From NCBI RefSeq assembly GCF_030915465.1, contig NZ_CP133267.1:2696501-2760500 (forward strand): 64,000 bases of DNA, given 5' to 3'. Source of the DNA: Neobacillus sp. PS3-34 (GTDB lineage: Bacteria; Bacillota; Bacilli; Bacillales; Cytobacillaceae). Below, piece after piece: positions 8,990-27,752 of this stretch. Below the pieces are notes generated by a model, which was not told where the DNA came from, made no database searches, and was given only the letters and a program-made list of their open reading frames with translations. Every line of letters begins with the position of its first letter. The stretch's first letter is position 1. A program made the position numbers and the translations under genes.

Positions 8990-9076
8990 TTATTCTAATA
9001 ACGGATGCTTATGTTTAAGATGAGGTTGCGGCAGCGCCCCCTTTTTTTGCACTAACGGTGCAGTTAGTACAATAAA
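8990..9076 (+). repeat. cassette element 1 (first of the array)
   Basis: Left arm TATTCTAATAACGGATGC, centre GTTGCGGCAGCGCCCCC then T7, right arm GCACTAACGGTGCAGTTAGT. It marks the left boundary of the gene/element alternation. A further degenerate arm (CTAAGGTGGCATTTTCTTATT) lies just before it. Confidence 0.7.
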
Positions 9077-9158
9077 AAGGATAATGCACTTGGATGTCGA
9101 AGTAATACTTTATTACCACGAAATTACCATTTTCAAAAATATAAAGGAGCAATGTTCA

Positions 9159-9581
9159 ATGTTTCAGCTTGAGTTATAGAATGCAATCTGGTTATTTGTA
9201 ATAATATTTATGCTACATGATTTTGAGGAAATAATAGCAGTTGAGAAATGGGCTACTAGAACGGAACGTAAAATAATAAGTAATAACAAATGGTTAAACA
9301 AAAAGATTTGGCAATTTTGGAATGTTAATTCGTATTCCTTTGCAAAGAGAGACGTTTTTATATTCTTAACAATGTCTATTATAACTTTCATTAAAATTCA
9401 AAACTTAGAAAGTTCATGGAGTTCAATTTTATATCTTTCATTCTTGATATTTGTTTTAATTCACAATGTTGCCCATGTCTTGCAAACACTATTGTTAAAA
9501 ACATATACCCCAGGTCTCGTTACTGCAATATTGTTGGTGACTCCTTACACTATATATTTGTTAAACCGAGTAACATCTTAG
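9159..9581 (+). pseudogene. HXXEE domain membrane protein with early in-frame stop
   Basis: The frame opens at ATG 9159, hits TAG at 9177-9179 (codon 7) and continues in the same frame as NAIWLFVIIFMLHDFEEIIAV. HDFEE is the HXXEE signature at the end of the first membrane segment. Three further hydrophobic segments follow (residues ~50-65, ~75-95, ~105-120 of the continued frame). An ATG at 9210 could restart translation but would lose most of the first membrane segment. The family's function is unknown. It is the first gene of the element-flanked array. Confidence 0.65.
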
Positions 9582-9597
9582 AAATTCTATATTACTC

Positions 9598-9680
9598 CTT
9601 GTTCCACTAAAGGGTGTAAAAGTTGAAGAGTGGAGCTGTCATTGAGGTAGCTTTTCTTATTTCATGGGTTAGTTGAAAAA
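9598..9680 (+). repeat. cassette element 2
   Basis: Left arm CTTGTTCCACTAAAGGGTG, centre GAGCTGTCATTGAGGTAGCT then TTTTCTTATTTC, right arm ATGGGTTAGTTGAAAAA. Confidence 0.8.
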
Positions 9681-9763
9681 AATTCAGATATTCATATTCC
9701 AAAATTTGGGTTAAAATTGTTTATGAGATTATAAGCATTTCCGAATTTAGGAGTGAATTTAAA

Positions 9764-10273
9764 ATGAGGAAATACCTGCAAATATGTATATTTTTTCTTT
9801 TTTTAGTATTAATCCTTATACCAGTTGTTGCTTGCGGTAAAATTCAAGAACCAAAATTAACTATTAAAGCACAAATTTCAACGTTAAGTAAAAATGAATT
9901 TAATTATATTGATACTAAAGGTTTTGATAATCCTATCAGAGGAGAATTCAGAAAGTTCACATTTGATTTCGATATGGAACATTCAGATGACTCTCGGAAA
10001 ATTGATATTCCAAGTTTTTCTGATTTGGTAAATAAAAGAATTGATAATGCACGTGTTTTACATGCTACGGGCGTTGAACAAGATAACAAAGGTGAAAATT
10101 TTGCAAAATACACAACTGAGTTCGTTTTTTATTCCAAAGGTTTAAGTGAAGATGAAATAAGGGAAGCTTTTAGTTCTGATGTTATTACAGTATCTTGGAT
10201 TGCGAAAAATGGAAAACATATTACAAAAAGGTTTATTATTGGTGATTTAATTAAATTTATTAATAAGGATTAG
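9764..10273 (+). CDS. putative lipoprotein (169 aa)
   Basis: ATG 9764 behind AGGAG. Hydrophobic signal (ICIFFLFLVLILIP) with lipobox VVACG predicts a lipid-anchored surface protein. The mature part is acidic and shows no recognised domain (KFTFDFDMEHSDDSRKIDIP). It lies between elements at 9598 and 10274 as a single-gene unit. Confidence 0.65.
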   Translation: MRKYLQICIFFLFLVLILIPVVACGKIQEPKLTIKAQISTLSKNEFNYIDTKGFDNPIRGEFRKFTFDFDMEHSDDSRKIDIPSFSDLVNKRIDNARVLHATGVEQDNKGENFAKYTTEFVFYSKGLSEDEIREAFSSDVITVSWIAKNGKHITKRFIIGDLIKFINKD

Positions 10274-10364
10274 TTCTTCAACTAAAGGCTGCAAGAGTTG
10301 ATGATCGGAGCTGCCAGAAATGGCAGCTTTTTATTGAACTAAAGGGGCAGTTTAGTTGAAGAAG
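10274..10364 (+). repeat. cassette element 3 (best-preserved copy)
   Basis: 91 bp. Left end TTCTTCAACTAAAGGCTGC, perfect central hairpin GCTGCCAGAAATGGCAGC then T5, right part TTATTGAACTAAAGGGGCAG, end TTTAGTTGAAGAAG. The outer ends TTCTTCAACTAAA and TTTAGTTGAAGAA are exact reverse complements, so the whole element is an imperfect palindrome with terminator character. Confidence 0.9.
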
Positions 10365-10455
10365 AAAAAACGTTTAATGCGTATTTTTGAGCCAAAAAGC
10401 GAAGTAAAGGAAGCGTCGTAATGACGCTTCAAGTAGGGAACAATATTTAAATGTA

Positions 10456-11010
10456 TTACTCTTTAATGTATGTACCTTTACACTTATTAACAAATATTTT
10501 AATGGTTATTCCAAGTGCAATGTAGTAAAGCAAAGAGTACCAATATTTCCATCTTATATAATACACTAAATTCATTGCCTTACTTACAGGTTCACCGATA
10601 AATGCAAATAACAATGACATAATTAATAAGGCTATTATGTATGACTTCCATTTATTAAAAAATTGATACATCAACATATAGGTAACAGACACCATTGACA
10701 TATCAAATGCCATTGCTCTTGGAGCAACAGGGCTAAACTGTACTGGGTAAATCCAAAAACTTAAATCAATACCAATAGCATCTAAAAAAGTAGTAGGAAT
10801 CATTGCTAGTGTACCAATTAAAATAATTTCCAATAGTCTTTTTCGGTCGATTACCTTAAGCCATATAATCCATGGGAGTAAAGCAAAAGCAAACAGAACC
10901 CACCAATTCCAGGAAAATAATTCATATTTTAGCCAATGATTAAGGTCATTTTCAAAATTTTCGTGATGTAGTTCATGCATTTTTAATGCTGCTTTTAGAT
11001 TTTCATTCAT
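10456..11010 (-). CDS. CBO0543 family membrane protein
   Basis: 184 residues with about five membrane segments and the family's WIYPVQFSP and DMSMVSVTYMLMYQ motifs. The N-terminal ~35 residues are soluble and His/Glu-rich (MHELHHENFEND). Function unknown; such proteins are common in Bacillaceae. It is one of two minus-strand genes in the array, and the elements on both sides keep the plus orientation. Confidence 0.75.
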   Translation of the reverse strand: MNENLKAALKMHELHHENFENDLNHWLKYELFSWNWWVLFAFALLPWIIWLKVIDRKRLLEIILIGTLAMIPTTFLDAIGIDLSFWIYPVQFSPVAPRAMAFDMSMVSVTYMLMYQFFNKWKSYIIALLIMSLLFAFIGEPVSKAMNLVYYIRWKYWYSLLYYIALGITIKIFVNKCKGTYIKE

Positions 11011-11151
11011 AATGAAAACCTAACTTATTTAAAAAAGGACACTTCATATTTGGTTCACCTTTTTATAAGAATATTATTTAGTTTTTACTTGTAACAAAAA
11101 AACATTCAACAAAAAAATTATTACGTCGCACTGCGAGGATATTGTGTACTT

Positions 11152-11236
11152 CTTGTTCAACTAACGGGTGCGATGCTTCAATAACGAAGGATCCTTTTTT
11201 TATTCAGGAAACGGACCCTTTAATAATAGAAGAAGG
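11152..11236 (+). repeat. cassette element 4
   Basis: Left arm CTTGTTCAACTAACGGGTGC, centre AAGGATCCTTTTTTT, degenerate right arm TATTCAGGAAACGGACCC, end AATAATAGAAGAAGG. Confidence 0.75.
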
Positions 11237-11295
11237 GATATATAGTTTGGCAGACGAATATAAAATATTTAGGAAAACTTAGGGGGCGTACAACA

Positions 11296-11754
11296 ATGGA
11301 AAATGTAATAAATGGTATCAATCATTGGATACGTTTTTTACCAGAAGAGTTCAACCTGATGACAAAAAATGAAGTAACTAATCGACCATTACCACACAAA
11401 TGGTCTAAAAAAGAGATTTTAGGACATCTATGCGACTCAGCAATAAATAATATTGATAGGTTTATAAAGATTCAGTACGAAGAACTCCCATATGTTATAC
11501 AATCGTATAATCAAGACCAATGGGTATTACTTCAGAATTATCAAGATTGTCCACTTGATGAGATACTAAACCTTTTTTCTTCATTGAATAAGCAAATCAT
11601 AAATATAATATTGAATATTCCAAGACGGAGATTATCCAATCTTTGTGACATAGGAAATAATCAACTAAAAACATTAGAATGGCTCATAAAAGATTATCTT
11701 GAACATATGGAACACCATATTAACAATCAAATCCTTATCAAAAATAATGCCTAA
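11296..11754 (+). CDS. DinB superfamily protein
   Basis: 152 residues. ATG 11296 lies behind AGGGGGCG. DinB-like four-helix pattern: PHKWSKKEILGHLCDSAINN near residue 35 carries the first conserved His, and DYLEHMEHHINNQ at the C-terminus carries the last. Metal-dependent activity is possible for the fold but unproven here. A single gene between elements at 11152 and 11764. Confidence 0.75.
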   Translation: MENVINGINHWIRFLPEEFNLMTKNEVTNRPLPHKWSKKEILGHLCDSAINNIDRFIKIQYEELPYVIQSYNQDQWVLLQNYQDCPLDEILNLFSSLNKQIINIILNIPRRRLSNLCDIGNNQLKTLEWLIKDYLEHMEHHINNQILIKNNA

Positions 11755-11763
11755 TATTGATTA

Positions 11764-11850
11764 TGCTTATTTAACTAACGGCTGCTTATCTTCAATAAAA
11801 TATATAAATAAAAAAGCTTGGATCATAAAATTTGGTCCAAGCATTTTTTG
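11764..11850 (+). repeat. cassette element 5 (left arm plus hairpin)
   Basis: Left arm GCTTATTTAACTAACGGCTGC and a central hairpin GCTTGGATC...GGTCCAAGC then ATTTTTTG, which can terminate the upstream gene. The right arm is not recognisable. Confidence 0.65.
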
Positions 11851-12045
11851 TGCTAATTTTTCACCGAATTTTTGCACGCAGCCTAATTGGACAGTTATTT
11901 CAATTGCGAATTGAACCGCCAGTTGTGAATCTGTACTTCAAAATCAAACTCGTTACTAATATAACAACGGGTTTACTTGTAAGGTACAAAACGGTAAATC
12001 GCAGACCAAATCAAATAGCAAATCACATAAACTTCACAGTCAAAA

Positions 12046-12082
12046 AGGCTTAGAGATGCAAATATCTCTAAGTCTTTTTTTT
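12046..12082 (+). terminator. intrinsic terminator
   Basis: CTTAGAGAT-GCAAAT-ATCTCTAAG followed by a T8 run. No convincing gene lies upstream; 11851-12045 appears non-coding. Confidence 0.7.
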
Positions 12083-12149
12083 GAATTTTCTTTTTTTCAC
12101 TAAACCCCCGTAAGTTATACAAGTTCATTAGACGCTAAAGTGAGTTTGG

Positions 12150-12345
12150 TAAATAAACGGAGAATTTTCTCTTAATTAGAAAATAGCACTGAAAATAGCT
12201 TAAATAGACGGAGAGATTCCGACTATTGACTCGAAAAACGTGAAAATGGTTAATTTTGCTTTGCTTAATTGGAAAACCTCCGCTTATATACCCCGAACTG
12301 AGCTCTATTCTGCTGTCTAACCGAAAAATCTCCGCTTATTTTATA
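12150..12345. repeat. four degenerate TCCGCTTAT-type repeats
   Basis: AATAAACGGAGAATTTTC (~12152) and AAATAGACGGAGAGATTCC (~12201) face their inverted counterparts GGAAAACCTCCGCTTATAT (~12271) and AAAAATCTCCGCTTATTTT (~12325). This two-plus-two inverted arrangement fills most of the gap 12083-12450, which holds no gene. Confidence 0.5.
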
Positions 12346-12452
12346 TAGCACTGGAAACCAGCTAAGTCTGAAGTCTGATATAAAAATCAAGCTCAAGCAC
12401 AATTATGAAAGTATTTGAAAAAAGGTAATATGGAATCAAGATAACAACAAGA

Positions 12453-12467
12453 TACCCTACGGGGGTA
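12453..12467. promoter_or_regulatory. CsoR-type operator
   Basis: TACCCTACGGGGGTA matches the GC-centred operator of the copper repressor CsoR in Bacillus (TACCCTACGGGGGTA upstream of copZA). It lies about 130 bp before the DJ-1/PfpI gene, which would then be metal- or sulfide-responsive. No CsoR or CopA gene is in the window. Confidence 0.45.
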
Positions 12468-12598
12468 CAACGAAATTTTGCGGTAATACCCAAAAGAGTG
12501 CGGTTTTTATCATGTTCAAACTAAGTACAATGTGACACAAGGGTAGTCAATAACAAATAACCACATTTTGGTGGTAGAAAATTGAGGAGGAAAATTAA

Positions 12599-13998
12599 AT
12601 GAAAAGGTTAGTAGTACGTTTAGCTGTTTATGTATTGATTTTCGTTGTTTTTATGGGGGGGATCGGGCTGTATGGATTTAATCGTCATCAAAAAGATTTT
12701 TACTTAAACGTCCGCCATGAGCCAGTTCCTTCGCTGCAAGGTGTGAAAATACCTCAATACAATCCCGATAAACCTACAGTAGCAGTCGTATTGGCGGATT
12801 CAACCATACCCACCGAAGACTTCGATTTTCTTATTCCCTACGAACTGCTGTCGATGACAGATGCTTATAATGTATACGCTGTTGCACCGGACAAAAACGT
12901 GAAGTCATTATCAGGCGGGCTGGATGTACTACCACATTACTCTTATAAAGAACTGGATAACCTATTAAATAAAAGTCCGGATATTATTGTGGTCCCTTAT
13001 ATGCCCATAGATGTGTCCAAATTAGATGAAGTGAAATATCAACCAACTCGCAAATGGATTCAAAAACATTCCAGAAGTAAAACGACGACTTTTGTAAGCA
13101 TTTGTGGTGGGTCGTTGAATCTTGCCGATGCCGGTTTATTAAAAGGGAAGTCGGCCACCTCACACTGGCAGGCCTTACCTGGATTAATCAAGAAATATAC
13201 GGATACACATTGGAAAGAGGATGTGCGGTATGTTCATGAAGGAAACACCTTAACTTCAGCCGGTCAAAGTGCAGGTATTGATGCAGTACTTCATCTGATA
13301 TCTCAGCAACTAGGAGAACCCGTGGCTGCAAAAATATCTAAGGAAATTAGTTATCCTTCGTACCAATTCGTACAAAATCCAAAGGTGGCCCTTTTTACAG
13401 GGATATAAAATTCGCAACATATCTACTAAATCTTGGATTCCATTGGAATAAGAAACAGATGGGTGTCCTTCTGTATAAAGATATGGATGAGATAGCTTTA
13501 TCTTCTATATTTGATTCTTATGGTGACACCGGAACGACACAAGTCTTGACCGTTTCTAGTTCGGATGCACCAATTACTACAAAACATCATCTTAATATAC
13601 TGGCAAGGCATCAAGTATCTAATGCTCCAAAATTAGACAAAATGATCATACCAGGTGGCGACGCAAAATCACTGGCTGCAGCAGATGTAAGACTTTGGAA
13701 TGAAAAGGGTAATGCAAAAGAAACCCTCCTTATTCATAGTGATTCACCAAACAGATATGTATTCGAAGCGCCATTGGAAGATTTAGCTAAACAAGAAGAC
13801 CTTTTAACTGCCAAGCATGCTGTAAAACGATTTGAATATCGTGCGACTGGTATCCATCTTGAGGGCAAACCATTTCCTCTTGAAACTTACGGCAATGTAC
13901 TTCTAACCGGTTTACTAGCTTTGTTGGTAGCTTTCTGTATTGACAGACGATTCATTATGAAGAAAACAATTTTCAAATCGTATAAACAAGCCGGTTAA
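12599..13998 (+). CDS. membrane-anchored DJ-1/PfpI tandem-domain protein (one frameshift)
   Basis: About 466 residues once a single-base gap is repaired. One N-terminal membrane segment (LAVYVLIFVVFMGGIGLYG), a first PfpI/DJ-1 domain with the nucleophile elbow VSICGGSLNLADAG (Cys at about residue 178), a second PfpI-like domain without an evident nucleophile Cys (KMIIPGGDAKSL) and a C-terminal membrane segment (VLLTGLLALLVAFCI). The frame changes at GGCC 13387-13390; adding one C gives KVAPFYRDIKFATYLL. ATG 12599 lies behind GGAGGAAAA. Substrate unknown; related proteins act as amidase or glyoxalase-like enzymes. A CsoR-like site lies upstream. It is longer than other genes in the array. Confidence 0.75.
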
Positions 13999-14003
13999 TC
14001 ACT

Positions 14004-14024
14004 ACCGCCTGCGGGCGGTTTTTT
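14004..14024 (+). terminator. terminator of the DJ-1/PfpI gene
   Basis: ACCGCCTGCGGGCGGTTTTTT, a short GC-rich stem and T run six bases after the stop codon. Confidence 0.85.
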
Positions 14025-14097
14025 CCATTCTCACCATTAACGTCCGATAGCTGCCATTATAGTAAATTATAGAACCAGAAATACCTGAAATTCCGTC

Positions 14098-14125
14098 AAC
14101 TCCGCTATTCTGCCCGTTAGCCACC
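14098..14125 (-). repeat. cassette-type element arm in reverse orientation
   Basis: The minus strand reads GTGGCTAACGGGCAGAATAG, a right-arm core. It is the only copy in this orientation that I found. Confidence 0.5.
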
Positions 14126-14186
14126 CACGAATGAGTGCGTTTCATCAAGTTATAAGTGGCTTTTCTAATTTCACAAGAAAGATTGT

Positions 14187-14274
14187 GCTTAAAGTAACGG
14201 GTGCATTACTATAAGATCCAGCTGCCAATGGCGGCTTTTTGTTTTTTCAGCTAACGGGCAGGATACTTCCAATA
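14187..14274 (+). repeat. cassette element 6
   Basis: Left arm GCTTAAAGTAACGGGTGC, centre GCTGCCAATGGCGGC then T5, right arm TTTCAGCTAACGGGCAGG, end ATACTTCCAATA. Confidence 0.85.
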
Positions 14275-14388
14275 CATGGTATCATTGGTCTGTGAGATAA
14301 AGTAATAGACTGAAAAACAAAGTTTTTGACTGAGAAAATAAAGTTGCAGACTAGAAATAGTTCCTTTCAAAAAACAAGGAGGATTTTT

Positions 14389-14894
14389 ATGGTTAACAAT
14401 CTGAATCAATCGTTCGAATTTACGCGTGTATTCGATGCCCCTCGCGAACTCGTATTTAAAGCATGGACAGAGCACGGGCATTTCGCGAAATGGTGGGGAC
14501 CAAAGGGATTCACCCTCGAAGTCGTTATAATGGACGCTCGATCAGGTGGCCGGTTTTTAGGTTTTCTGACGTCTCCTAACGGAAATCTAGTTATGTGGAG
14601 AAAATTTACATACCAAGAGGTTGTCGAACCTGAGAAAGTGTCTTATATCCAATCCTTTTCCGATGAGCAAGGCAATACGGTCGGAGCGCCTTTTAGTGGG
14701 AGCTGGCCTCTTGAAATTATGAATGTCATAACGCTTGAAGATGACGAAGGTAAAACTGTTTTAAACTGAAAGGTTGGCCTGTGAACGCTTCCGCTGAGGA
14801 ACAAGAATCTTACAACGGTATGGCTCCAATGCTTCAACAAGATCTTGAGGGTACTTTCGATAAACTTGCCGACTATCTTGTCTCCCTGAATTAG
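14389..14894 (+). CDS. SRPBCC / AHSA1 domain protein (one frameshift)
   Basis: About 168 residues. ATG 14389 lies behind AAGGAGG. N-terminal FTRVFDAPRELVFKAWTE and KWWGPKGFT are hallmarks of the AHSA1-type START fold. The frame closes early at 14769 (EGKTVLN), while the next frame continues LKGWPVNASAEEQESYNG and LEGTFDKLADYL to TAG 14894. One base is missing in TTTTAAACTG near 14760. This break is not at GGCC, so it may be a real mutation or an A/T-run error. Members bind hydrophobic ligands or act as small stress proteins; the role here is unknown. Confidence 0.75.
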
Positions 14895-14950
14895 AATGCG
14901 ATAAAAAATTTAATCGGCGAAAAAACCTTAATCACTTTTAACGTTACAGG

Positions 14951-15040
14951 TCATTGAGCTAACGGGGGCGAGAGTTAAACAAGGTGTTGTGGCGGCAGCA
15001 TCATTTTCTTATTCAGCTACCGGGGCAGGTTAATTCAAAA
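14951..15040 (+). repeat. cassette element 7
   Basis: Left arm TCATTGAGCTAACGGGGGC, centre GTTGTGGCGGCAGCATC, right part CTTATTCAGCTACCGGGGCAG, end GTTAATTCAAAAA. Confidence 0.85.
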
Positions 15041-15070
15041 AAATTCCATTGATGAGGTGAGGCTTCAGGT

Positions 15071-15358
15071 ATGGAAGTGAGCAAGTTAAAACAGTGCATA
15101 GCAGTGTCAAAGGTTATATTATCTACTGATGTAATAAAAGAGGTAGAACATTACTTTAATCATAGTGAATATGAAATGGCTTTTGAGGGGTTATTAATCG
15201 AATTAACCAAGTTGGGAAAGTATCCATTAGGTTTTAATTTTCTTGAATGGAAAGCACTTGGAGAACATTTTAAACTTGATAAAGAATCGGTGTTTGATGT
15301 GTCTATTTGGACAAAATTCTTGAATTGGGGAAAAGATTACTTAGACCAATACAGATAA
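15071..15358 (+). CDS. hypothetical protein (95 aa)
   Basis: Soluble, helical 95-residue protein. ATG 15071 lies behind GAGGTGAGG. The middle segment HYFNHSEYEMAFEGLLIEL resembles small contact-dependent immunity proteins, but I cannot assign a family. Flanked by elements at 14951 and 15361. Confidence 0.55.
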   Translation: MEVSKLKQCIAVSKVILSTDVIKEVEHYFNHSEYEMAFEGLLIELTKLGKYPLGFNFLEWKALGEHFKLDKESVFDVSIWTKFLNWGKDYLDQYR

Positions 15359-15360
15359 AT

Positions 15361-15447
15361 GCTTATTGAAGTAACGGAGTGCTTTACTTCAAGAAGGAGT
15401 AAAGCCTTTTTCTTATTCAAGTAACGGAGCAGTTTAGTTACGATCAA
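15361..15447 (+). repeat. cassette element 8
   Basis: Left arm GCTTATTGAAGTAACGGAG, centre GCTTTACTTC...GGAGTAAAGC then CTTTTTC, right arm TTATTCAAGTAACGGAGCAG, end TTTAGTTACGATCAAC. Confidence 0.85.
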
Positions 15448-15469
15448 CTAAAATAAAAAACAAAGGAAG

Positions 15470-15979: not shown

Positions 15980-16081
15980 TAAGAACACTCTCCTCTAATA
16001 TTATAGTTTGTGTATTTTTCATCTCTTTATAACGATAATTTGTTGAAGAATGTAGGTGTTTTATCATATTTGTGAAGTGTT

Positions 16082-16174: not shown

Positions 16175-16248
16175 AATTATTTGATAAGAAGGATTTTATT
16201 GGACTCAATCGAACTCTAAATAGATAAATTGAAATGGGAGTATGGAAA

Positions 16249-21037: not shown

Positions 21038-21143
21038 TTACTTTAGAGTAGAAAACTTATTAAAAGCCTTGAAGGACTCAGTCTTTCAAGGTTTCACTTT
21101 GATGAAATAATTTATAAGACAATCGGAAACGGCACATAAATTC

Positions 21144-21236
21144 CTTGTTCCACTAACGGGTGCATTACATAAATAACCGACAACCACTACCTGCTAATTT
21201 TGTTCTTAAAGCAAAGGGGCAGTTTAATTCAAGATT
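21144..21236 (+). repeat. cassette element 16
   Basis: Left arm CTTGTTCCACTAACGGGTGC, centre with little symmetry (CCGACAACCACTACC), right arm TTCTTAAAGCAAAGGGGCAG, end TTTAATTCAAGATT. Just before it, CCTTGAAGGACTCAGTCTTT and CAAGG (about 21070-21094) form a hairpin that may end the LRR transcript. Confidence 0.8.
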
Positions 21237-21814
21237 CTTTAGCTAAAGGAGTAATTTCCATATTTTTGTTGGTGTGGAATTTACTGACCAGAGTTATATT
21301 TATTTCACCTATGTTTTTCTATGGAATTTTATTAGAGGTGGATAATATTATGGGCATTCTACTGGTACTTTCCATAGTTCTTTCAATGTGGATTTTGCGA
21401 AGGTATTTAAGAACTAAAGGTCCTTTTACTTTAAACGGTTACCGCGAAAGAGAAACAAAATTATTCGTTCAAAAAGGGTGGAAGGAATTAATAAATTTAT
21501 CGAAAGAAAAAATGGAAAAATTCCAATTAGATGAAAGTGAAAGAGCCATAACTAACCTAACCATTGGTCATAGTTATTTTATGCTAAATTTGTATGAATC
21601 AGGTTACCGATATTATCAGGAAGGAATTAACATTTTAAATGTTGCTGAATTACCGTTTATTAGGACAGACACCTTTCAAGAATTAATGGATTTCTTAATA
21701 AAAGAAAGGCAAATATTAATTGCAAAAAAACTGTACATTGAAGTAAAAGATTTAAAACTTCACAAAAAGGATTTAGACACATTAAAAAAATACGAATACT
21801 TAATCAGTGTATAA
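21200..21814 (+). CDS. membrane protein with TPR-like tail
   Basis: The frame is open from 21200, inside element 16, but translation more likely starts near TTG 21266 behind AAAGGAG at 21245-21251. Two membrane segments (FLLVWNLLTRVIFISPMFFYG and ILLVLSIVLSMWILRR) are followed by a soluble helical part (ELINLSKEKMEKF, AITNLTIGHSYFMLNLYESG, YYQEGINILN) with the spacing of tetratricopeptide helices. Function unknown. Confidence 0.55.
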   Translation: MFLKQRGSLIQDSLAKGVISIFLLVWNLLTRVIFISPMFFYGILLEVDNIMGILLVLSIVLSMWILRRYLRTKGPFTLNGYRERETKLFVQKGWKELINLSKEKMEKFQLDESERAITNLTIGHSYFMLNLYESGYRYYQEGINILNVAELPFIRTDTFQELMDFLIKERQILIAKKLYIEVKDLKLHKKDLDTLKKYEYLISV

Positions 21815-21835
21815 AAGAAAACTCATTTTAGTATA

Positions 21836-21900
21836 GACGTTGCTGCCATTTTAGGTGGCATTTTTGTTATTAAACAAACGAAGCAGGTTAATGTAAGAAG
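21836..21900 (+). repeat. cassette element 17 (centre and right arm)
   Basis: Centre GTTGCTGCCATTTTAGGTGGC then ATTTTTG, diverged right arm TTATTAAACAAACGAAGCAG, end GTTAATGTAAGAAGG. Confidence 0.65.
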
Positions 21901-21957
21901 GATTTGTTTTATTCAGTAGCGAATTTAGGAATCTAAAAAGTTAAGGAGGTTATTGTA

Positions 21958-22377
21958 TTGCAATCACTAAAAATGGCTCAATTAATTGATTTAGATAATA
22001 TAGTAAAAATTGATGAAGAAGTAATCGGTAACAATAGCAGATGTGAATATATTAGGAAAGCTATTGAAGAAGAGAGATGTATAATTGCTAATGATAAGAA
22101 TCTTATCGTTAGTTTTTTAATATTTGATACTCATTTCTTTGATTGTAGCTTCATTTCACTGATAATCGTTAAACCAACTGAAAGGCGAAAAGGATACGCT
22201 ACATCACTTATTAAGTATTTTATAAACAGTTCGCCAACAAAGAAAATTTTCTCTTCAACCAATAAATCAAATCAAAGAATGCAAGAAGTTTTTAAAGTAA
22301 ATGGATTCATAAAAAGTGGGTTTATTGAAAATTTAGATGAAGAAGACCCTGAGATAATTTACTTTAAATCTAAATAA
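21958..22377 (+). CDS. GNAT-family N-acetyltransferase
   Basis: 139 residues from TTG 21958, behind AAGGAGG. The acetyl-CoA loop ERRKGYATSLIKYF matches motif A (R/Q-x-x-G-x-A), preceded by strand FISLIIVKP and followed by FKVNGFIKSG (motif B). It acetylates an unknown amine; small GNATs of this type act on amines, antibiotics or protein N-termini. Flanked by elements at 21836 and 22381. Confidence 0.8.
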   Translation: MQSLKMAQLIDLDNIVKIDEEVIGNNSRCEYIRKAIEEERCIIANDKNLIVSFLIFDTHFFDCSFISLIIVKPTERRKGYATSLIKYFINSSPTKKIFSSTNKSNQRMQEVFKVNGFIKSGFIENLDEEDPEIIYFKSK

Positions 22378-22380
22378 GTT

Positions 22381-22475
22381 CTTGTTCGACTAACGGGTGC
22401 TTATGTTAAGTAAAGGTGTTGCTGCTGCGGCATCTTTATTCTTATTAAGCTAAAGTGGCAGTTTACTTGAAGAAG
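22381..22475 (+). repeat. cassette element 18
   Basis: Left arm CTTGTTCGACTAACGGGTGC, centre TTGCTGCTGCGGCATC, right arm CTTATTAAGCTAAAGTGGCAG, end TTTACTTGAAGAAG. Confidence 0.9.
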
Positions 22476-22530
22476 TATTACCAATAGAATAATTGTAAGA
22501 AACTAAAAATTTTCGAGGAACCAAAAGGGT

Positions 22531-22818
22531 GTGGTCGAATTGGTGTACTGGCTGATAACTTTTGTGATTATGGTTTTCATTTCCTTTATCGGCATCAAAA
22601 AAGGCAGATGGACAAAGATGGATGTGTTTCTTTTTACCTTTTTTTATTTTTTCCTCTACGCCTTAAGCAAACTTCTGCACAGTGAATGGTTGGCACCGAA
22701 CTTCGATGACGGCAATCATCACGTCATCAGCTTTATCGGGATTTTTCTCTGGTTTCTCTGCATTATCACGGCGAAGTTCCTTCTTCATTTTCGACAAAAA
22801 AGAAAGCGAAGAACCTAG
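22531..22818 (+). CDS. small membrane protein (95 aa)
   Basis: GTG 22531 (an in-frame GTG also lies at 22543). Three hydrophobic segments (WLITFVIMVFISFIGI, VFLFTFFYFFLYALS, VISFIGIFLWFLCIITA) and a basic tail (RQKRKRRT). Its codon use is visibly richer in G and C than its neighbours, suggesting a different source. Not recognised. Flanked by elements at 22381 and 22832. Confidence 0.55.
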   Translation: MVELVYWLITFVIMVFISFIGIKKGRWTKMDVFLFTFFYFFLYALSKLLHSEWLAPNFDDGNHHVISFIGIFLWFLCIITAKFLLHFRQKRKRRT

Positions 22819-22831
22819 GGGTGATACTTTT

Positions 22832-22872
22832 TATTTATTCAAGTAACGGGGGCGATAGTTTAACAATTAGAC
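22832..22872 (+). repeat. cassette element 19 (left part)
   Basis: TATTTATTCAAGTAACGGGG then GCGATAGTTTAACAATTAG. The right arm is not seen; the sequence 22873-23061 is non-coding with a repeated GCTTYGGCAGT motif near 22990-23030. Confidence 0.65.
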
Positions 22873-23061
22873 CATAACAACGTGATATTTATTACCATTC
22901 GACTTATAGAAAATCTATTTACACTATCAGGAAAAAAGAGGTTTAATAGAGAGGCAACACGGAATGGAGTGGGTTCTACTTTTGGCTTTGCTTCTGCCCT
23001 GCTTTGGCAGTAATCCTGGGTTCTGCTTCGGCAGTGGTCCTACCCTCTTCAAAAGGATGAA

Positions 23062-23166
23062 ATGAAAATGGAAATCAAGATGTCTATACGAATCAAAATT
23101 TCAAGTGAGGTTGTCGGACTAGTGACGGCGTTAATTAACCTTGCGGTAAATCTGCTTAACCTGTAA
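23062..23166 (+). CDS. possible short hydrophobic peptide (34 aa)
   Basis: ATG 23062 behind AAAAGGATG encodes MKMEIKMSIRIKISSEV followed by VGLVTALINLAVNLLNL, a basic start and a single amphipathic-to-hydrophobic helix. The stop codon lies inside a strong terminator (23154-23183). Size and layout fit a small type I toxin-like or holin-like peptide, but it matches no family I know. No antisense RNA could be confirmed. Confidence 0.4.
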   Translation: MKMEIKMSIRIKISSEVVGLVTALINLAVNLLNL

Positions 23167-23183
23167 TGGGTTAAGCTTTTTTA
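23154..23183 (+). terminator. intrinsic terminator
   Basis: GCTTAACC-TGTAAT-GGGTTAAGC followed by TTTTTTA. It overlaps the 3' end of the short ORF at 23062-23166. Confidence 0.8.
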
Positions 23184-23256
23184 CTTCTTTGAACCAATAT
23201 AGAAACGGCACTGATCCGTCTCGGAAGTCTTGCAAAAATTAGGAGGGGGTGGAGAG

Positions 23257-24006
23257 TTGAGATTGTCAGAATACGATTCTTCATTTAAAAATAAGTTTAT
23301 GTTTTTAAAATTCATGGATGATCAAAGTCATGTAGAAAGCCTTCAAAACGGTAATTTAAGATGTGGTACTGCTAAAATTTATAAAGATTTTGAGAAAAAA
23401 AAAGGTAAAAAAGGCATAGGGGATAGATACGATTCATCTTTGGTCATTGTTCCACAAAAAGTTAAGTTTCACCTTTCCGATACTATTAAACTTGAAGCTA
23501 AAGCTAATAAAGTAAGTCTTGATGATGGTGAAATTGATCACATGCCTGTATTTTGCCTATATGGACTAAATGGTGACTATTTAGAAGTTGAAGATCAGGA
23601 TGATGAATATTATTATACAAGGACTGTCTTTGATGAAGATGACAAAATTCTATTACAAAAAGACTTTGGGGAACATGCTTTATTAATACATCCGATTTTT
23701 TTAGAAAGAGTTGCTCAACGAATGAAAGAGCAAGAGATTAAAGTCACGCACGACTTTGTTACATATCATGATCTTTCAAATAATGATTTAAAAAAATATA
23801 TTTCTTACGAACAAAATAAGCTAAATGTTGTGTTTCAAAAAGATAAATCTTTTATACATCAAAAGGAATATAGACTTTTATTACATACTCAAATAACAGA
23901 CTACAAATGGTTTGATATTGGAGATATACATGATTGCTCTGGTTATATAACAAGAGAAAATTTATTTACTGAAGGATTTGAATTGCAAGTAGTTAAGAAT
24001 GCTTAA
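23257..24006 (+). CDS. hypothetical protein (~249 aa)
   Basis: TTG 23257 is chosen because AGGAGGGGG lies just upstream. The N-terminal FMDDQSHVESLQNGNLRCG reads like proteins that begin with an F-x-x-G-x-L-x-x-x motif followed by a charged region, and the C-terminal KSFIHQKEYRLLLHTQI resembles their 'K-x-x-E-[YW]-R' motif. Such proteins often occur in phage and defence islands, but their activity is unknown and the match is by eye only. The middle is very acidic (EVEDQDDEYYY). Confidence 0.55.
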   Translation: MRLSEYDSSFKNKFMFLKFMDDQSHVESLQNGNLRCGTAKIYKDFEKKKGKKGIGDRYDSSLVIVPQKVKFHLSDTIKLEAKANKVSLDDGEIDHMPVFCLYGLNGDYLEVEDQDDEYYYTRTVFDEDDKILLQKDFGEHALLIHPIFLERVAQRMKEQEIKVTHDFVTYHDLSNNDLKKYISYEQNKLNVVFQKDKSFIHQKEYRLLLHTQITDYKWFDIGDIHDCSGYITRENLFTEGFELQVVKNA

Positions 24007-24210
24007 TGTTTTCAAAAAGATAAAAAAGGAAGACACTCTTTAACTACCATGAAAATAGGTTTCTTCAAGATTAGAAAAATGACAATACTTAAGAAGACCC
24101 TGCTCAATCGATAAAAAAGAGGAGAGCGTTAATTAATAAGTCTATGGATTGGGGTGGACTGGATTAAGGTCAGTATCAGTATTGACACTTCCTACCCATT
24201 TTCATTCTCT

Positions 24211-24270
24211 GTGGTGCAGCACTGATTTTGTGCTGCATGGATGGCTAAAGGGGCAGGATAGTTCAATAAT
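24211..24270 (+). repeat. cassette element 20 (centre and right arm)
   Basis: Centre GTGCAGCACTGATTTTGTGC with TGCAT, right arm ATGGCTAAAGGGGCAGG, end ATAGTTCAATAAT. The sequence 24007-24210 shows no gene. Confidence 0.7.
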
Positions 24271-24314
24271 GTATTATGATAAAATAAATGGAAAATTAGT
24301 AGAGGTGGGTTGAA

Positions 24315-24803
24315 ATGAACACCATTTTAGATGATTTTTTAGAGTTGAAAGAAATACTAAATTCGTTCAACGGACTCGAAAAAAATTATAATTGGCTACT
24401 AACTGACCTTGATTGGTCTTACCCTGAGAATTATCTTGATTATTTTGAAGAATATCGAGAATTTGAAGAAAGTGCTACTGCTCTTAATAACTATTGGATT
24501 ACAGGCGAAAACCTAACTAAACTTGCTAAAAATAAAGACGTTTATTTTATTTGGGGTGTATTTTCAGCATTTGAAAAGAATGAGAAAATTGATCTAAATG
24601 AAATTAAAGTGGAACCTTATGCTGATGGAAATCCAAATTTTTGGATTGATAATCCTAAAATTCAACATCCAAAGGCTGTTGTTGAATTAGTCCTGTGGGA
24701 CTCTTCATCAATTCTCCTTCTTAGTAAAGATAATGTATTATCAAATAAATTTAGAAACACTTTTGAAGGTTGGAAGGATTTAAATGAATACAATCAGAAG
24801 TAA
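24315..24803 (+). CDS. hypothetical protein (162 aa)
   Basis: ATG 24315 behind AGAGGTGGG. Acidic soluble protein rich in Trp and Tyr (NYNWLLTDLDWSYPENYLDY, VYFIWGVFSAF, PNFWIDNPKIQHP, GWKDLNEYNQK). The composition suggests a small immunity-type protein, which is inference; no family recognised. Flanked by elements at 24211 and 24809. Confidence 0.6.
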   Translation: MNTILDDFLELKEILNSFNGLEKNYNWLLTDLDWSYPENYLDYFEEYREFEESATALNNYWITGENLTKLAKNKDVYFIWGVFSAFEKNEKIDLNEIKVEPYADGNPNFWIDNPKIQHPKAVVELVLWDSSSILLLSKDNVLSNKFRNTFEGWKDLNEYNQK

Positions 24804-24808
24804 ATTTT

Positions 24809-24886
24809 CTTCAACTAACGGGGGCATTACTGAAACAACGGTAATGCTTTTTCTTATTCAAGTAAAGGGCAGGTTAGTTTAACAAG
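24809..24886 (+). repeat. cassette element 21
   Basis: Left arm CTTCAACTAACGGGGGC, centre GCATTACTGAAACAACGGTA with ATGCTTTTT, right arm TTATTCAAGTAAAGGGCAGG, end TTAGTTTAACAAG. Confidence 0.9.
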
Positions 24887-25008
24887 AAATTGTTATAATG
24901 TTATTAAAAGTAGTCGAGATATATATGAAGGGATCTAAGGTCTTCATAAACACAAGTTATTCAAAGCAATCATAGTTACTCAAAAGTTTTGAAAGTGAGG
25001 AAAAGATA

Positions 25009-25851
25009 ATGTCTGCCTATGAAATGACACCAGTTCCTAACGCCATTACTCTTGTTGGTTTTTATGAAAAAGGGGAAATGTTTGAGAAACCTAATTATAT
25101 AGAGGAATTAGAGCTATTGAGTAATAAACTAGGCCGTCCTGTGACGAAAAAGTTTTATGTAATATATGACGATGACGCAACCGCCAACTTTATAGGAGTA
25201 GAAAAGGACGCTGCTTTTGATAATGATTGGCTAACTGAATTTATCATACCGGAAGGGATCTACCTAAAGGTACAAAGTGAATCATACTATCCAACCTTTG
25301 CCCATGAATGGCTGAACGATTGGGTGTTTGGTGAGGATAAAATATATGAAAACTCTCTTTTCTTTGAAGAGTTTTCAATTGAGAATGGTGAACGATACAT
25401 CTATTTTCCAGATGTTGATCCCATTGTCAATGCAAGCTGGCGGGAGTACCGTCCTTTAGGTAATTCAAAAGAGATGATTAAAGAGCTGACTGAACAGTTT
25501 ATTTCTGCTGAAAGTGAAGGATATATATGGGAATCCACATTTGCCATAAAGAATAAAGTGGTAGGACTAGATAACTTATCAAAACTGATCAAGCCCTTAC
25601 CAAACCTGGTCTATCTCCTGTTGGATGAATCAAACGCGATTCTCCCTGTTTCACATGCCAGAAGTGCAGTTTATGAGGTGAAAACGGAGGAGTTAATTAA
25701 TGAGATTGTCGAGGAAGTAAATGATAATTTACCAAGTGATTGCTGCATATTTGATAAAACTTATGAATGGTTTATTATCACATCTCATGAAGCACTGGAT
25801 GAGAATGACAACCATTATATAGTGGGCGGAAAACTGTTAGAATATCTTTGA
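25009..25851 (+). CDS. two-domain protein, GyrI-like N-terminus
   Basis: 280 residues, ATG 25009 behind GTGAGGAAAAG. Residues 1-145 look like a GyrI/effector-binding fold (LVGFYEKGEM, KKFYVIYDDDATANFIGVE, GIYLKVQSESYYPTFAHEW, ENGERYIYFPDVDP). Residues ~160-280 are a separate domain (ESTFAIKNKVVGLDNLSKLI, YEVKTEELINEIVEEVN, DKTYEWFIITSHEALD) found alone in many small Bacillus orphans. Ligand and role unknown. Flanked by elements at 24809 and 25891. Confidence 0.6.
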   Translation: MSAYEMTPVPNAITLVGFYEKGEMFEKPNYIEELELLSNKLGRPVTKKFYVIYDDDATANFIGVEKDAAFDNDWLTEFIIPEGIYLKVQSESYYPTFAHEWLNDWVFGEDKIYENSLFFEEFSIENGERYIYFPDVDPIVNASWREYRPLGNSKEMIKELTEQFISAESEGYIWESTFAIKNKVVGLDNLSKLIKPLPNLVYLLLDESNAILPVSHARSAVYEVKTEELINEIVEEVNDNLPSDCCIFDKTYEWFIITSHEALDENDNHYIVGGKLLEYL

Positions 25852-25890
25852 TATAGAAAAGAACAAAAAATCAAAACAAGTATGAGTGAC

Positions 25891-25930
25891 CTTGTTCAGC
25901 TAACGGGGGCTTTAAGTCAATAAATGGAAA
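25891..25930 (+). repeat. cassette element 22 (left arm)
   Basis: CTTGTTCAGCTAACGGGGGC then TTTAAGTCAATAAATGG. A degenerate right arm (TTATTGAAGTAACACAACAG, TTTATAAG) may be present at 26076-26101, after the terminator at 25983. Confidence 0.65.
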
Positions 25931-25982
25931 AGTTTAGAAAATGTTTAGTTTTTGGAAAATAAAAGGATGATAAAATGGAAAA

Positions 25983-26018
25983 AACAGCGTTTCTGTATTT
26001 AAGCAGGAACGCTCTTTT
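25983..26018 (+). terminator. intrinsic terminator
   Basis: AGCGTTTCTG-TATTTAAG-CAGGAACGCT followed by CTTTTG. Confidence 0.8.
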
Positions 26019-26111
26019 GCTATAAAGAGAAGATTTGGGAGAGATAAATGTGGAGAATCATTTTTATAAGAAGTTTATTGAAGTAACACAACAGTTTATA
26101 AGGGGAATCAA

Positions 26112-26417
26112 ATGAAACCAAGAAATAATTGGATAGTTATTATTATCTTCAATTTACTTTTATACGTTATTTCCTATTTCTCTACAAAAACCTTATTGTT
26201 AACACCGGAAGCAAGGACGTTTCCGAACTTGAAATTTCTTTTGGTGTTATTACTAACTATACTTTTAGTGCTTTCATTAGGAGTTGCCATCAGAAGATAT
26301 ATTTTAACTTATTTGAATGATGAAAATGAACGGAATAATTTTAGGAGAATTTTGCTATTTACTGCCCCTTTGACCCTTTTATTGTATATGACTTTATTTT
26401 TAAATTATTTTCAATAA
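26112..26417 (+). CDS. small membrane protein (101 aa)
   Basis: ATG 26112 lies behind AAGGGGAATC. Three membrane segments (WIVIIIFNLLLYVISYF, FLLVLLLTILLVLSLGVAI, ILLFTAPLTLLLYMTLFLNY) with basic residues between. Not recognised. Flanked by element arms at 26076 and 26523. Confidence 0.6.
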   Translation: MKPRNNWIVIIIFNLLLYVISYFSTKTLLLTPEARTFPNLKFLLVLLLTILLVLSLGVAIRRYILTYLNDENERNNFRRILLFTAPLTLLLYMTLFLNYFQ

Positions 26418-26522
26418 AATAAATTCTAACTTCGGTGATTTTTATTGTGACCGGAGACCAACCCTGGTTTAATACTGGTCTTTATATTGATTGGTTTTCT
26501 AATAAATCTTACTATCTCTCTG

Positions 26523-26598
26523 TGCAAGAGATGAAGAACGGAGCTGTCATTGAGGCGGCTTTTCTTATTGTGCTAACGGGCAGTTTAGTTTAAGAAGG
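26523..26598 (+). repeat. cassette element 23
   Basis: Centre GGAGCTGTCATTGAGGCGGC then TTTTCTTATTG, right arm TGCTAACGGGCAG, end TTTAGTTTAAGAAGG. The centre is nearly identical to element 2 at 9598. Confidence 0.8.
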
Positions 26599-26685
26599 AA
26601 TTTTTAAATTGAAAAAAGAATAATTTGGAATAGTAAATTGTTAAAATTACGGCTGAATTTGTTTAATGAAAGGGGAAAAGACTTG

Positions 26686-27597
26686 ATGACTGAATTTACT
26701 TCTAAACATTTTACACTTGAGAAAATAAGTAAAGGTATTTATGCAGCAATCGCAAAAGATGGTAGTGGATCAGTTGGGAATGCGGGATTTATAGATTTAG
26801 GTGGAACAACAATTATTTTTGATACTTTTAACACTCAACAAGCAGCAGAAGATTTAAGAAATTTAGCCGAAAACATTACAAATCAACCTGTTTCTTGGGT
26901 TATCAATAGTCATTGGCATGGTGACCATATTAGAGGTAATCAGGTATTTAAAAAATGTAATATATTATCTAGTCAAACAACTCTTCAAAAAATGAAGGAA
27001 AATCATCCACAAAGAATTGCCAAACAAAAAGAAGATATAACAGGTTTAAACAATTATATTGAATCACTAATTGAACAAAGGAAAAGCTCCACTGACATAA
27101 ATTTAGACAATAAAATTAATTTTCTAAGAGAGATAGCAATTTCGCTGCCCACCCTAGAATTAGTTTTACCACAATACGCTTTTAACACAGAATTTACTAT
27201 TTATGGAACAAAACGTACTGCTATACTGATGGCACTTGGGGGAGGTCACTCATATTGTGATTCTATTCTTTATATACCTGAAGATGAAATTATCTTTATG
27301 GCTGACCTTTTATTTGTCAAGACTCACCCATCATTTTTCCCCGAGTCTAATCTAATACATTGGGAAAGTATTTTAAACAAAGTTAAGAGCTTTGAGATAC
27401 AAAAAGCAATCCCTGGACATGGACCAATTGGAACAAAAGAGGATATTACAAAGTTAATTAACTACATAAAAGAATTAAAGATTATTTCAAATGAAAACAA
27501 TAATCTAGATGAAGTTCCAATTCCTGATAAATATAAAGAGTGGGCATCCCCTGAATTGTTTATTCAGAATTTAAAAATTTTAAAGAATCCTAACTAG
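26686..27597 (+). CDS. MBL-fold metallo-hydrolase
   Basis: About 303 residues from ATG 26686; the in-frame TTG at 26638 lies further from the GGGGAAAAG site. The metal-binding motif SHWHGDH (HxHxDH) at about residue 80, GGGHSYCDSILYIP with the next His, MADLLFV with the bridging Asp and PGHGPIG with the last His give a complete dinuclear zinc site. A long helical insert (~residues 110-155) separates the halves. Substrate unknown; relatives include quinolone-degrading and lactonase-type enzymes. It is the last large gene of the array. Confidence 0.8.
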   Translation: MTEFTSKHFTLEKISKGIYAAIAKDGSGSVGNAGFIDLGGTTIIFDTFNTQQAAEDLRNLAENITNQPVSWVINSHWHGDHIRGNQVFKKCNILSSQTTLQKMKENHPQRIAKQKEDITGLNNYIESLIEQRKSSTDINLDNKINFLREIAISLPTLELVLPQYAFNTEFTIYGTKRTAILMALGGGHSYCDSILYIPEDEIIFMADLLFVKTHPSFFPESNLIHWESILNKVKSFEIQKAIPGHGPIGTKEDITKLINYIKELKIISNENNNLDEVPIPDKYKEWASPELFIQNLKILKNPN

Positions 27598-27635
27598 CTT
27601 GGTGACCCATAACAAAGAGATATAACAAACTCGAT

Positions 27636-27717
27636 CCTTATTAAACTAACAGAGTCGATTCTTTAACAAGGCATCGCTTTTTCCTAATTTAATTGGCAAA
27701 TCAGATTGTGAAGAATT
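27636..27717 (+). repeat. cassette element 24 (degenerate)
   Basis: Left arm CCTTATTAAACTAACAGAG, centre TCGATTCTTTAACAAGGC and ATCGCTTTTTCC, right arm TAATTTAATTGGCAAATCAG. Confidence 0.65.
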
Positions 27718-27752
27718 CTACTTAAAGTAACGGCTGCTTTACTGGAATAAAC
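27718..27752 (+). repeat. cassette element 25 (left arm, last copy)
   Basis: CTACTTAAAGTAACGGCTGC then TTTACTGGAATAAACC. The last copy found; none occurs from here to 64000. Confidence 0.65.

What the first reader, a model, noticed from the sequence alone, without database searches (positions are those of the whole stretch)
8990..27752. Integron-like array: about twenty single genes, each separated by a copy of one palindromic element
From 9.0 to 27.8 kb almost every gene is alone and is followed by a copy of the same ~80-95-bp element (25 copies listed, 14-16 of them essentially complete). Gene content is what mobile cassettes carry: GNAT, SUKH, DinB, SRPBCC, MBL, LRR, small membrane and lipoproteins and many unknowns, with no metabolic theme and mixed codon use. 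The one-gene-one-site pattern is the hallmark of integron cassette arrays. However, the sites are not canonical attC and no integrase lies in the window. I know of no described cassette system in Bacillaceae that uses this element, so this could be a new gene-capture system.
Basis: partly seen in the sequence, partly recalled or inferred. Interest (0 to 1): 0.95.

Follow-up and report, generated by a model that had tools for sequence, protein, structure and literature searches.

The report
Bacillus gene-cassette arrays with own recombinase
Bacillus-family bacteria carry long arrays of unrelated single genes separated by copies of one 34-bp palindromic site, and these genes are likely swapped as cassettes by a recombinase whose own gene sits as a backwards cassette inside many of the relatives' arrays, which would make this a gene-capture system separate from classical integrons.

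Summary
Window 8,988-27,752 is one array of about 23 single-gene units in a Bacillaceae chromosome with about five such arrays, each of one orientation. The ~90-bp element is two tandem copies of one 34-bp site (CTTnTTnAACTAA-CGGGNGCN-TTAGTTnAAnAAG) around a short, mostly terminator-like spacer. Cassettes shared between arrays lose identity at TAACGG^ in the site core: 52 of 192 endpoints within 8 nt, 2.9 expected. This genome has XerC, XerD and a 41-aa remnant of the recombinase that relatives carry: a 279-aa Xer-like enzyme inside the arrays, antisense, itself bounded by sites. It occurs in 21 of 61 genomes, all with at least 5 elements, and in none of 27 with fewer. Of its 80 best loci in GTDB species, 68 have mainly antisense elements nearby; 77 testable viral-contig homologues (34-71% identical) have no sites. 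It works like an integron, but IntI, attC boxes and attC fold were tested and not met; neither was likeness to dif. Recombination itself is inferred, not observed. Ten literature searches found no description.

The parts
8988..27752 (+). cassette array: about 23 single-gene units separated by 34-bp sites, sites read on the + strand
8989..9076 (+). site pair, cuts after 9004 and 9058
9598..9682 (+). site (cut after 9613), terminator-like spacer, degenerate second site
10273..10363 (+). site pair, cuts after 10288 and 10345
11152..11232 (+). site pair, cuts after 11167 and 11214
11766..11799 (+). single site, cut after 11781
14185..14275 (+). site pair, cuts after 14200 and 14257, terminator-like spacer
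14950..15041 (+). site pair, cuts after 14965 and 15023
15362..15445 (+). site pair, cuts after 15377 and 15427
16082..16174 (+). site pair, cuts after 16097 and 16156
16742..16836 (+). site pair, cuts after 16757 and 16818
17778..17811 (+). single site, cut after 17793
18149..18229 (+). site pair, cuts after 18164 and 18211, with a terminator-like hairpin between (18167-18189)
19022..19055 (+). single site, cut after 19037
19328..19423 (+). site pair, cuts after 19343 and 19405
20021..20109 (+). site (cut after 20036), terminator-like spacer, weaker second site
21144..21235 (+). site pair, cuts after 21159 and 21217
21836..21901 (+). degenerate element (22.2 bits in model R1)
22381..22474 (+). 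site pair, cuts after 22396 and 22456
22834..22867 (+). single site, cut after 22849
24806..24886 (+). site pair, cuts after 24821 and 24868
25891..25924 (+). single site, cut after 25906
26522..26598 (+). element with degenerate first site; second cut after 26579
27637..27751 (+). last two sites of the array, cuts after 27652 and 27733
9210..9581 (+). cassette gene, HXXEE protein (PF13787)
11296..11754 (+). cassette gene, DinB_2
12599..13408 (+). cassette gene, DJ-1/PfpI family, probably continued in 13459-13998
14326..14769 (+). cassette gene, AHSA1/SRPBCC
16234..16722 (+). cassette gene, SUKH-1 (SMI1_KNR4)
16757..17769 (+). cassette 98.7% identical to one in a second array of the same genome (2,083,655-2,084,667); upstream end breaks at the site core, downstream end 17-24 nt short of one
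18299..19018 (+). cassette gene with DUF1871
19400..20040 (+). cassette 97.8% identical to one in a second array of the same genome (2,081,336-2,081,977); breaks at the core downstream and, by eye in the alignment, upstream
20135..21037 (+). cassette gene, LRR protein
21958..22377 (+). cassette gene, GNAT acetyltransferase
26638..27597 (+). cassette gene, metallo-beta-lactamase superfamily (Lactamase_B fold family)
10456..11010 (-). cassette gene on the opposite strand, no Pfam family found
15470..15988 (-). cassette gene on the opposite strand, no Pfam family found

Best explanation
The array is a chain of single-gene cassettes, each bounded by copies of one palindromic site, and whole cassettes likely move by strand exchange inside the 8-bp core of that site (TAACGG^GNGC), predicted to be catalysed by a dedicated 279-aa Xer-like tyrosine recombinase found in the arrays of relatives but only as a 41-aa remnant in this genome. 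Shown: junctions enriched at one place of the site, the clustering and common orientation of strong sites, the linkage of recombinase and sites across genomes, and the recombinase gene itself being, in most testable loci, next to such sites on one or both sides and antisense to them. Inferred: that this enzyme cuts this site, as a loxP/dif-like double-stranded site of two 13-bp arms and an asymmetric 8-bp spacer that sets orientation; that cassettes excise as circles carrying one restored site and re-enter at another; and that the short spacer units, mostly terminator-like, insulate neighbouring genes. The window's own array would then be sedentary unless the enzyme is supplied in trans, for example by a plasmid.
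For: Junctions: alignments of eleven shared cassettes show left arms travelling with the gene upstream and right arms with the gene downstream, most ends breaking in the core. Of 96 true breaks between different loci, 52 of 192 endpoints lie within 8 nt of a cut, expected 2.9, maximum 11 in 500 rotations. Recombinase cassettes: on the start side pairwise identity is about 0.9 up to TAANGG, 0.33 at the next base and about 0.3 beyond the arm (42 of 496 pairs, chosen for at least 75% identity inside); on the stop side the drop is blurred by the conserved core (23 of 1,326 pairs). In relative G013, cassettes P and Q adjoin in one array and are 4.1 kb apart in another, with both junctions in the core. 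Linkage: arm sequences correlate within a spacer unit (z 10.3) far more than across cores (z 0.9 and 2.8). Recombinase: 21 of 61 genomes, all with at least 5 elements, 0 of 27 with fewer, p = 8e-8. Of 80 loci, 68 have more antisense than sense elements (53 of them three or more; 465 antisense to 16 sense in all); 58 of 74 testable loci have a flanking site on at least one side, 37 on both; 0 of 77 testable viral-contig homologues do. 50 of 53 site-flanked recombinases fall in the best-separating clade, of 54. Own-genome remnant at 650.0 kb.
Against: No recombination was observed and excised circles were not sought. Of the 96 breaks between different loci, 50 have neither side within 25 nt of a cut, 19 one side, 27 both; IS copies, other repeats and divergence within genes explain some, but I did not resolve each. 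25 of 46 element-bearing genomes, the window's own among them, lack the recombinase by my 55%-identity line, and several of the 21 carry only broken or partial copies. 16 of 74 recombinase loci show no flanking site, and 12 of 80 have no antisense element; below 75% identity only 1 of 8 bacterial loci has a site, so the viral control differs in identity as well as in host. The remnant at 650 kb has no site within its 3.1-kb locus. One window cassette ends 17-24 nt short of a site.
Confidence: 0.85

Rival explanations
1. The arrays are diverged clusters of integron attC sites without integrase (CALINs), formed by a true IntI on folded single-stranded attC sites.
For: One gene, one site, one orientation; no recombinase in the window; a tandem site pair could fold like attC with outer and inner arms paired. 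attC-type boxes, though rare, are commoner than in shuffled arms (8.7% against 3.4%, 9.3% against 1.7%), since both have GTT/AAC in the arms.
Against: The array recombinase scores 92.7 bits against the integron-integrase cut-off of 265. GTTRRRY and RYYYAAC boxes occur together in 1.1% of 1,161 sites. Arms do not covary overall in the attC-like pairing (394 elements, z -0.8 and -0.6, one position pair within the spacer at z 6.9). Single half-sites act as junctions.
Confidence: 0.05
2. Host XerC/XerD move the genes as dif-module-like cassettes.
For: XerC and XerD are the only tyrosine recombinases found over the Pfam cut-off in the window's genome, and the inverted-arm layout suits a tyrosine recombinase.
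Against: Sites match the genome's own dif no better than shuffled sites (12.0 against 12.9 of 28, best single site 17). A dedicated recombinase tracks the sites across genomes, whereas recombinase matches of any kind, down to about 30% identity (Xer-like), turned up in 60 of 61 genomes, site-bearing or not.
Confidence: 0.05
3. The elements are ordinary intergenic repeats or terminators, and gene exchange is by homologous recombination between repeats.
For: Spacers look like terminators in 283 of 491 cases against 26-41 when shuffled; sites are palindromic and repeated; 50 of 96 breaks are not near a cut.
Against: Clustering of strong copies in five regions with fixed strand, breakpoint excess at one core position in sites that are only about 60% alike, and a recombinase that is itself site-bounded.
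Confidence: 0.03
4. IS110-family transposases (bridge-RNA recombinases) move the cassettes.
For: Copies of one IS110 family lie in the core, between TAA and CGG, within 3 nt of the cassette crossover (8 left ends; 9 of 16 right ends printed); a second family, seen twice, lies in the same core a few bases off.
Against: They carry only their own transposase and look like insertions into sites; they do not explain a site-bounded tyrosine recombinase restricted to site-bearing genomes. I did not test IS110 co-occurrence across genomes.
Confidence: 0.02

Closest known systems
Integrons (sedentary chromosomal integrons and CALINs)
   Same: Long arrays of unrelated single genes, mostly in one direction, each followed by a recombination site; a tyrosine recombinase gene antisense to the cassettes; genomes with arrays but no enzyme.
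   Different: Enzyme is not IntI by the curated model; sites are palindromic 34-bp units mostly without attC R boxes and without fold covariation; the recombinase gene is itself site-bounded and often among other cassettes (at least two elements on each side in 20 of 42 loci); no separate attI platform seen.
XerCD dif modules (pdif modules of Acinetobacter; listing and abstract starts seen, otherwise recalled)
   Same: Genes bounded by short tyrosine-recombinase sites made of two inverted arms and a short central region.
   Different: Sites unlike the genome's dif; a dedicated recombinase; long one-direction arrays.
loxP/FRT-type sites (recalled)
   Same: 13-bp inverted arms around an asymmetric 8-bp spacer.
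   Different: Used here as cassette borders repeated many times with strongly varied sequence; enzyme is Xer-like.
IS1111-attC elements (recalled, not looked up)
   Same: IS110-type elements that target a cassette recombination site.
   Different: Here the target is the core of the Bacillales site, not attC.

Membership tests
Integron | integron integrase IntI (TIGR02249) | tested here: not met
   Array recombinases of two genomes score 92.7 and 93.0 bits, cut-off 265; own genome has only XerC/XerD and a 41-aa remnant of the array recombinase
Integron | attC sites with R boxes GTTRRRY / RYYYAAC | tested here: not met
   Right-arm box 8.7%, left-arm box 9.3%, both 1.1% of 1,161 sites; shuffled arms 3.4% and 1.7%
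Integron | attC recognised as a folded single strand (conserved pairing) | tested here: not met
   No overall covariation in attC-like pairings over 394 of 491 elements, except single position pairs within a spacer; single-strand use is not excluded by experiment
Integron | attI platform with the integrase at one end of the array | tested here: inconclusive
   In 42 loci with 9 kb on each side, 145 elements lie on one side and 150 on the other, at least two on each side in 20; both borders are ordinary sites where seen. Arrays longer than the loci were not followed to their ends
Integron | arrays of single-gene cassettes with one-direction sites | tested here: met
XerCD dif module | sites resembling dif | tested here: not met
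   12.0 of 28 matches against 12.9 in shuffled sites
Tyrosine recombinases (Xer-like) | PF00589 catalytic domain with R, K, HxxR, H, Y | tested here: met
   PF00589 133 bits; R138, K162, H228, R231, H254, Y263 in alignment A3, assigned by recalled comparison with XerD; one of nine copies (L121) has lost R231
XerC / XerD / XerA | curated equivalog score | tested here: not met
   L067 copy: XerD 203.7 of 329.6; XerC 203.5 of 335; XerA-type NF040815 211.1 of 220, a near miss
This system | recombinase acts on the site | not testable with these tools
   needs a bench assay

The most novel reading that the evidence does not exclude
Bacillales possess a second gene-cassette capture system, evolved independently of integrons: a Xer-derived recombinase that is itself a cassette shuttles single genes between chromosomal and plasmid arrays through double-stranded, loxP-like 34-bp sites, without attC folding and without an attI platform.
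Probability: 0.75. Interest if true: 0.95.

Novelty: new variant of a known kind. Interest (0 to 1): 0.92.

Why it matters
Integrons are rare in Firmicutes: IntegronFinder 2.0 reports one complete integron there, in Limnochorda pilosa, and a few CALINs (PMC9024848, passages read). How Bacillaceae acquire their many lone accessory genes is therefore open. This system would give a mechanism that can be tested directly, explain long stretches of 'hypothetical' genes as one mobile cassette pool shared across genera and plasmids, and provide a comparison case for how cassette systems arise, here with the integrase as one cassette among many. It may also yield a new recombinase with many natural variant sites.

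Tried and rejected
Considered and dropped: true attC/CALIN; XerCD dif modules; REP/HUH-type palindromes (the crossover lies in the palindrome centre, not beside it; no HUH family search was made); serine recombinase (one small resolvase found, 735 kb, outside the arrays); IS110 as driver; an RNA family (Rfam: two sub-threshold hits only); phage-borne cassettes (no phage record matched the one element tried; viral-contig homologues of the recombinase lack sites). Folding first led me to an attC-like model of the whole element; the covariation and linkage tests went against it, although the linkage table also shows a weak L1-L2 correlation (z 2.7) that I do not explain. A search for A-B against A-X-B pairs gave 8 candidates. 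I looked at four: one is clean (L064/L062), one involves what looks like an IS110 insertion, and two are unclear. The other four were not examined. PADLOC found no defence protein in the 20 cassette proteins given, of 23 units.

Limits: the genome shows frameshift-like breaks in both xer genes, so gene intactness in this assembly is unsure. The 55% identity line for the array recombinase was set after seeing the list, and that list is cut at its weak end. In the tree, 21 of 160 recombinases were left out because of stops, frame breaks or truncation, and the clade was picked as the one that separates best. Record titles of a few loci (Chryseobacterium, L171; Paenibacillus, L138 and L145) look misnamed.
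Full report
WHAT IS THERE. The window is bases 2,696,501-2,760,500 of a 4.90-Mb single-contig chromosome. Relative G001, of the same genus, has a contig of the same length as one of Bacillus sp. cl95, so the genome is taken to be Bacillaceae; this is inferred. Between 8,988 and 27,752 about 23 single genes alternate with a repeated element. Sixteen near-complete elements align at 60% mean column identity. Each element is two tandem copies of one palindrome. The consensus over 1,161 strong sites is TTnTTnTTnAACTAACGG GnGCnTTAnTTnAAnAAnG, that is 13-bp inverted arms around an asymmetric 8-bp core. Over 112 array loci and 1,841 sites, 478 of 1,729 successive distances lie at 40-69 nt and 1,076 at 200-3,000 nt. 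Short spacers hold a terminator-like hairpin on the array strand in 283 of 491 cases, against 26-41 in five sets of shuffled spacers and 87 on the other strand.

NOT SCATTERED. A sequence model of the element (R1) gives 132 matches in the whole genome at E up to 1. Those listed below 1e-5 lie in five regions, each with one orientation. Eight control stretches of the same genome, 91 kb, have 3 sites on both strands together. Plasmids have them too: 9 of 72,556 records matched one element; a 40-kb part of pG25-68 of Peribacillus muralis has 34 sites on one strand amid mostly lone genes, and a 6-kb P. simplex plasmid has 6. No phage record matched that element.

JUNCTIONS. Cassettes found in different contexts were compared. 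In eleven pairs aligned by eye the left arm of a site stays with the gene before it and the right arm with the gene after it; most ends lose identity in the core TAACGG^GNGC, in either site of a pair. Counted without choosing cases: 173 alignment ends, 128 of them true breaks, 96 of those between different loci. 52 of their 192 endpoints lie within 8 nt of a cut, against 2.9 expected by rotation and 11 at most in 500 trials. Both sides are within 25 nt in 27 breaks, one side in 19, neither in 50; many of the latter are IS110 copies, other repeats or gene-internal divergence, but I did not resolve each. In relative G013, cassettes P and Q are neighbours in one array and 4.1 kb apart in another, with both junctions in the core (L064 at 6,366; L062 at 10,984 and 15,140). 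Two cassettes of the window recur at 98.7% and 97.8% identity in the array at 2.08 Mb of the same genome; three of their four ends are in the core, one is 17-24 nt short of it. Between this genome and G003 one cassette is 95.9% identical over 825 nt, while the single flank gene compared is 75% identical in DNA.

THE RECOMBINASE. The window's genome has one XerC and one XerD, both broken by frameshift-like interruptions, and no other tyrosine recombinase over the Pfam cut-off. A 41-residue, 73%-identical tail of the array recombinase remains at 650.0 kb, with no site near it. Fourteen array-bearing relatives were searched for tyrosine recombinases, and one family lies inside the arrays, opposite to the sites. 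It is 279 aa, with all six catalytic residues in eight of nine aligned copies. It is close to Xer and archaeal XerA models but under their curated cut-offs; its best sequence matches among solved structures are XerD and XerA-like proteins. At 55% identity or more it occurs in 21 of 61 genomes, some with broken or partial copies only. All 21 have at least 5 elements, and none of the 27 genomes with fewer has it (p = 8e-8). The protein search found 950 clusters at E up to 1e-60. Of the 120 listed, those with names have generic ones (tyrosine-type recombinase/integrase, XerD); one, from Paenisporosarcina, is called 'site-specific tyrosine recombinase/integron integrase', the name of model NF040815. 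The GTDB scan found it in Neobacillus, Peribacillus, Mesobacillus, Cytobacillus, Psychrobacillus, Paenisporosarcina, Lysinibacillus, Oceanobacillus, Virgibacillus and others. Eight plasmid records encode a relative of it (50-86% identical).

THE RECOMBINASE IS A CASSETTE. Of the 80 kept loci, 68 have more antisense than sense elements nearby, 53 of them three or more (465 antisense and 16 sense in all); 12 have no antisense element. Of 74 with room to test, 37 have a site on both sides, 16 only past the stop, 5 only before the start, 16 neither; typical distances are 55 nt past the stop and 85 nt before the start. At 75% identity or more 57 of 66 have a site, below that 1 of 8. The negative control is 77 testable homologues on viral contigs, 34-71% identical, none with a flanking site; they are also more distant, so the control speaks for a clade rather than for phages as such. 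Identity between recombinase cassettes falls after TAANGG on the start side. Its place is often inside the array: at least two elements on each side in 20 of 42 loci, 145 and 150 elements in all. Of 53 site-flanked recombinases in a tree of 139, 50 fall in the best-separating clade, of 54 (support 0.83).

HOW IT LIKELY WORKS. Inferred: the recombinase binds the two arms of a double-stranded site, exchanges strands in the core, and thereby excises, inserts or exchanges a cassette bounded by cores; the asymmetric core keeps cassettes in one direction. The double-stranded reading rests on two tests. Arms do not covary overall within a site or in the attC-like pairing (394 of 491 elements; z -0.6, 1.9, -0.8, -0.6, with one position pair inside the spacer at 6.9). 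Arms of the same spacer unit are correlated (z 10.3), while arms across a core are less so (z 0.9 and 2.8), the two left arms weakly (2.7) and outer arms not at all (-0.5) (319 de-duplicated elements). This genome's arrays would now be idle unless a plasmid brings the enzyme.

COMPARISON. It works like an integron but fails features that define one: IntI, attC R boxes, attC fold; an attI platform was not seen, though arrays were not followed to their ends. It also fails the site test for dif modules. Copies of one IS110 family lie between TAA and CGG of the core, much as IS1111-attC elements (recalled) use attC. Ten literature searches (listings and abstract starts seen, plus passages of PMC9024848) showed no description. 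The library lacks most subscription papers and all bioRxiv preprints, so a published account may exist.

Noticed in passing
window 11961-12354: Non-coding repeat of about 390 bp, 88-90% identical to copies in L024, L028 and (in part) L031 of the same genome, lying inside the array between two sites.
   Followed up: no
window 4156-4649 and 32152-32466: Tandem repeats with a 146-bp unit at two places of the window; related DNA occurs elsewhere in the genome (L028, L029).
   Followed up: no
window 39059-39537: Tandem repeats of a 21-bp unit (GCGAAATAAATCGTGAATCCC type), over about 480 bp.
   Followed up: no
G000 860.4-861.3 kb and 3842.4-3843.3 kb (L019, L018): XerC and XerD reading frames are interrupted by frameshift-like breaks, possibly assembly indels; the window's DJ-1/PfpI gene (12599-13998) and SRPBCC gene (from 14326) look split in a similar way.
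   Followed up: partly
L031:10770-12416, L068:6672-8316, L014:10240-12041 and others: Two IS110-type lineages inserted repeatedly in the core of the cassette site; one lies exactly between TAA and CGG in the copies printed.
   Followed up: partly
L121:9113-9949: An otherwise intact array recombinase has lost the arginine of HxxR (HPHQLGHS) and is probably inactive.
   Followed up: no
G000:C1:4482384-4482411: The likely chromosomal dif site lies at 4.48 Mb, which suggests that the contig does not start at the origin.
   Followed up: no
L210-L289 (viral contigs): Homologues 34-71% identical to the array recombinase occur on viral contigs without the sites; they may show where the enzyme came from.
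   Followed up: partly
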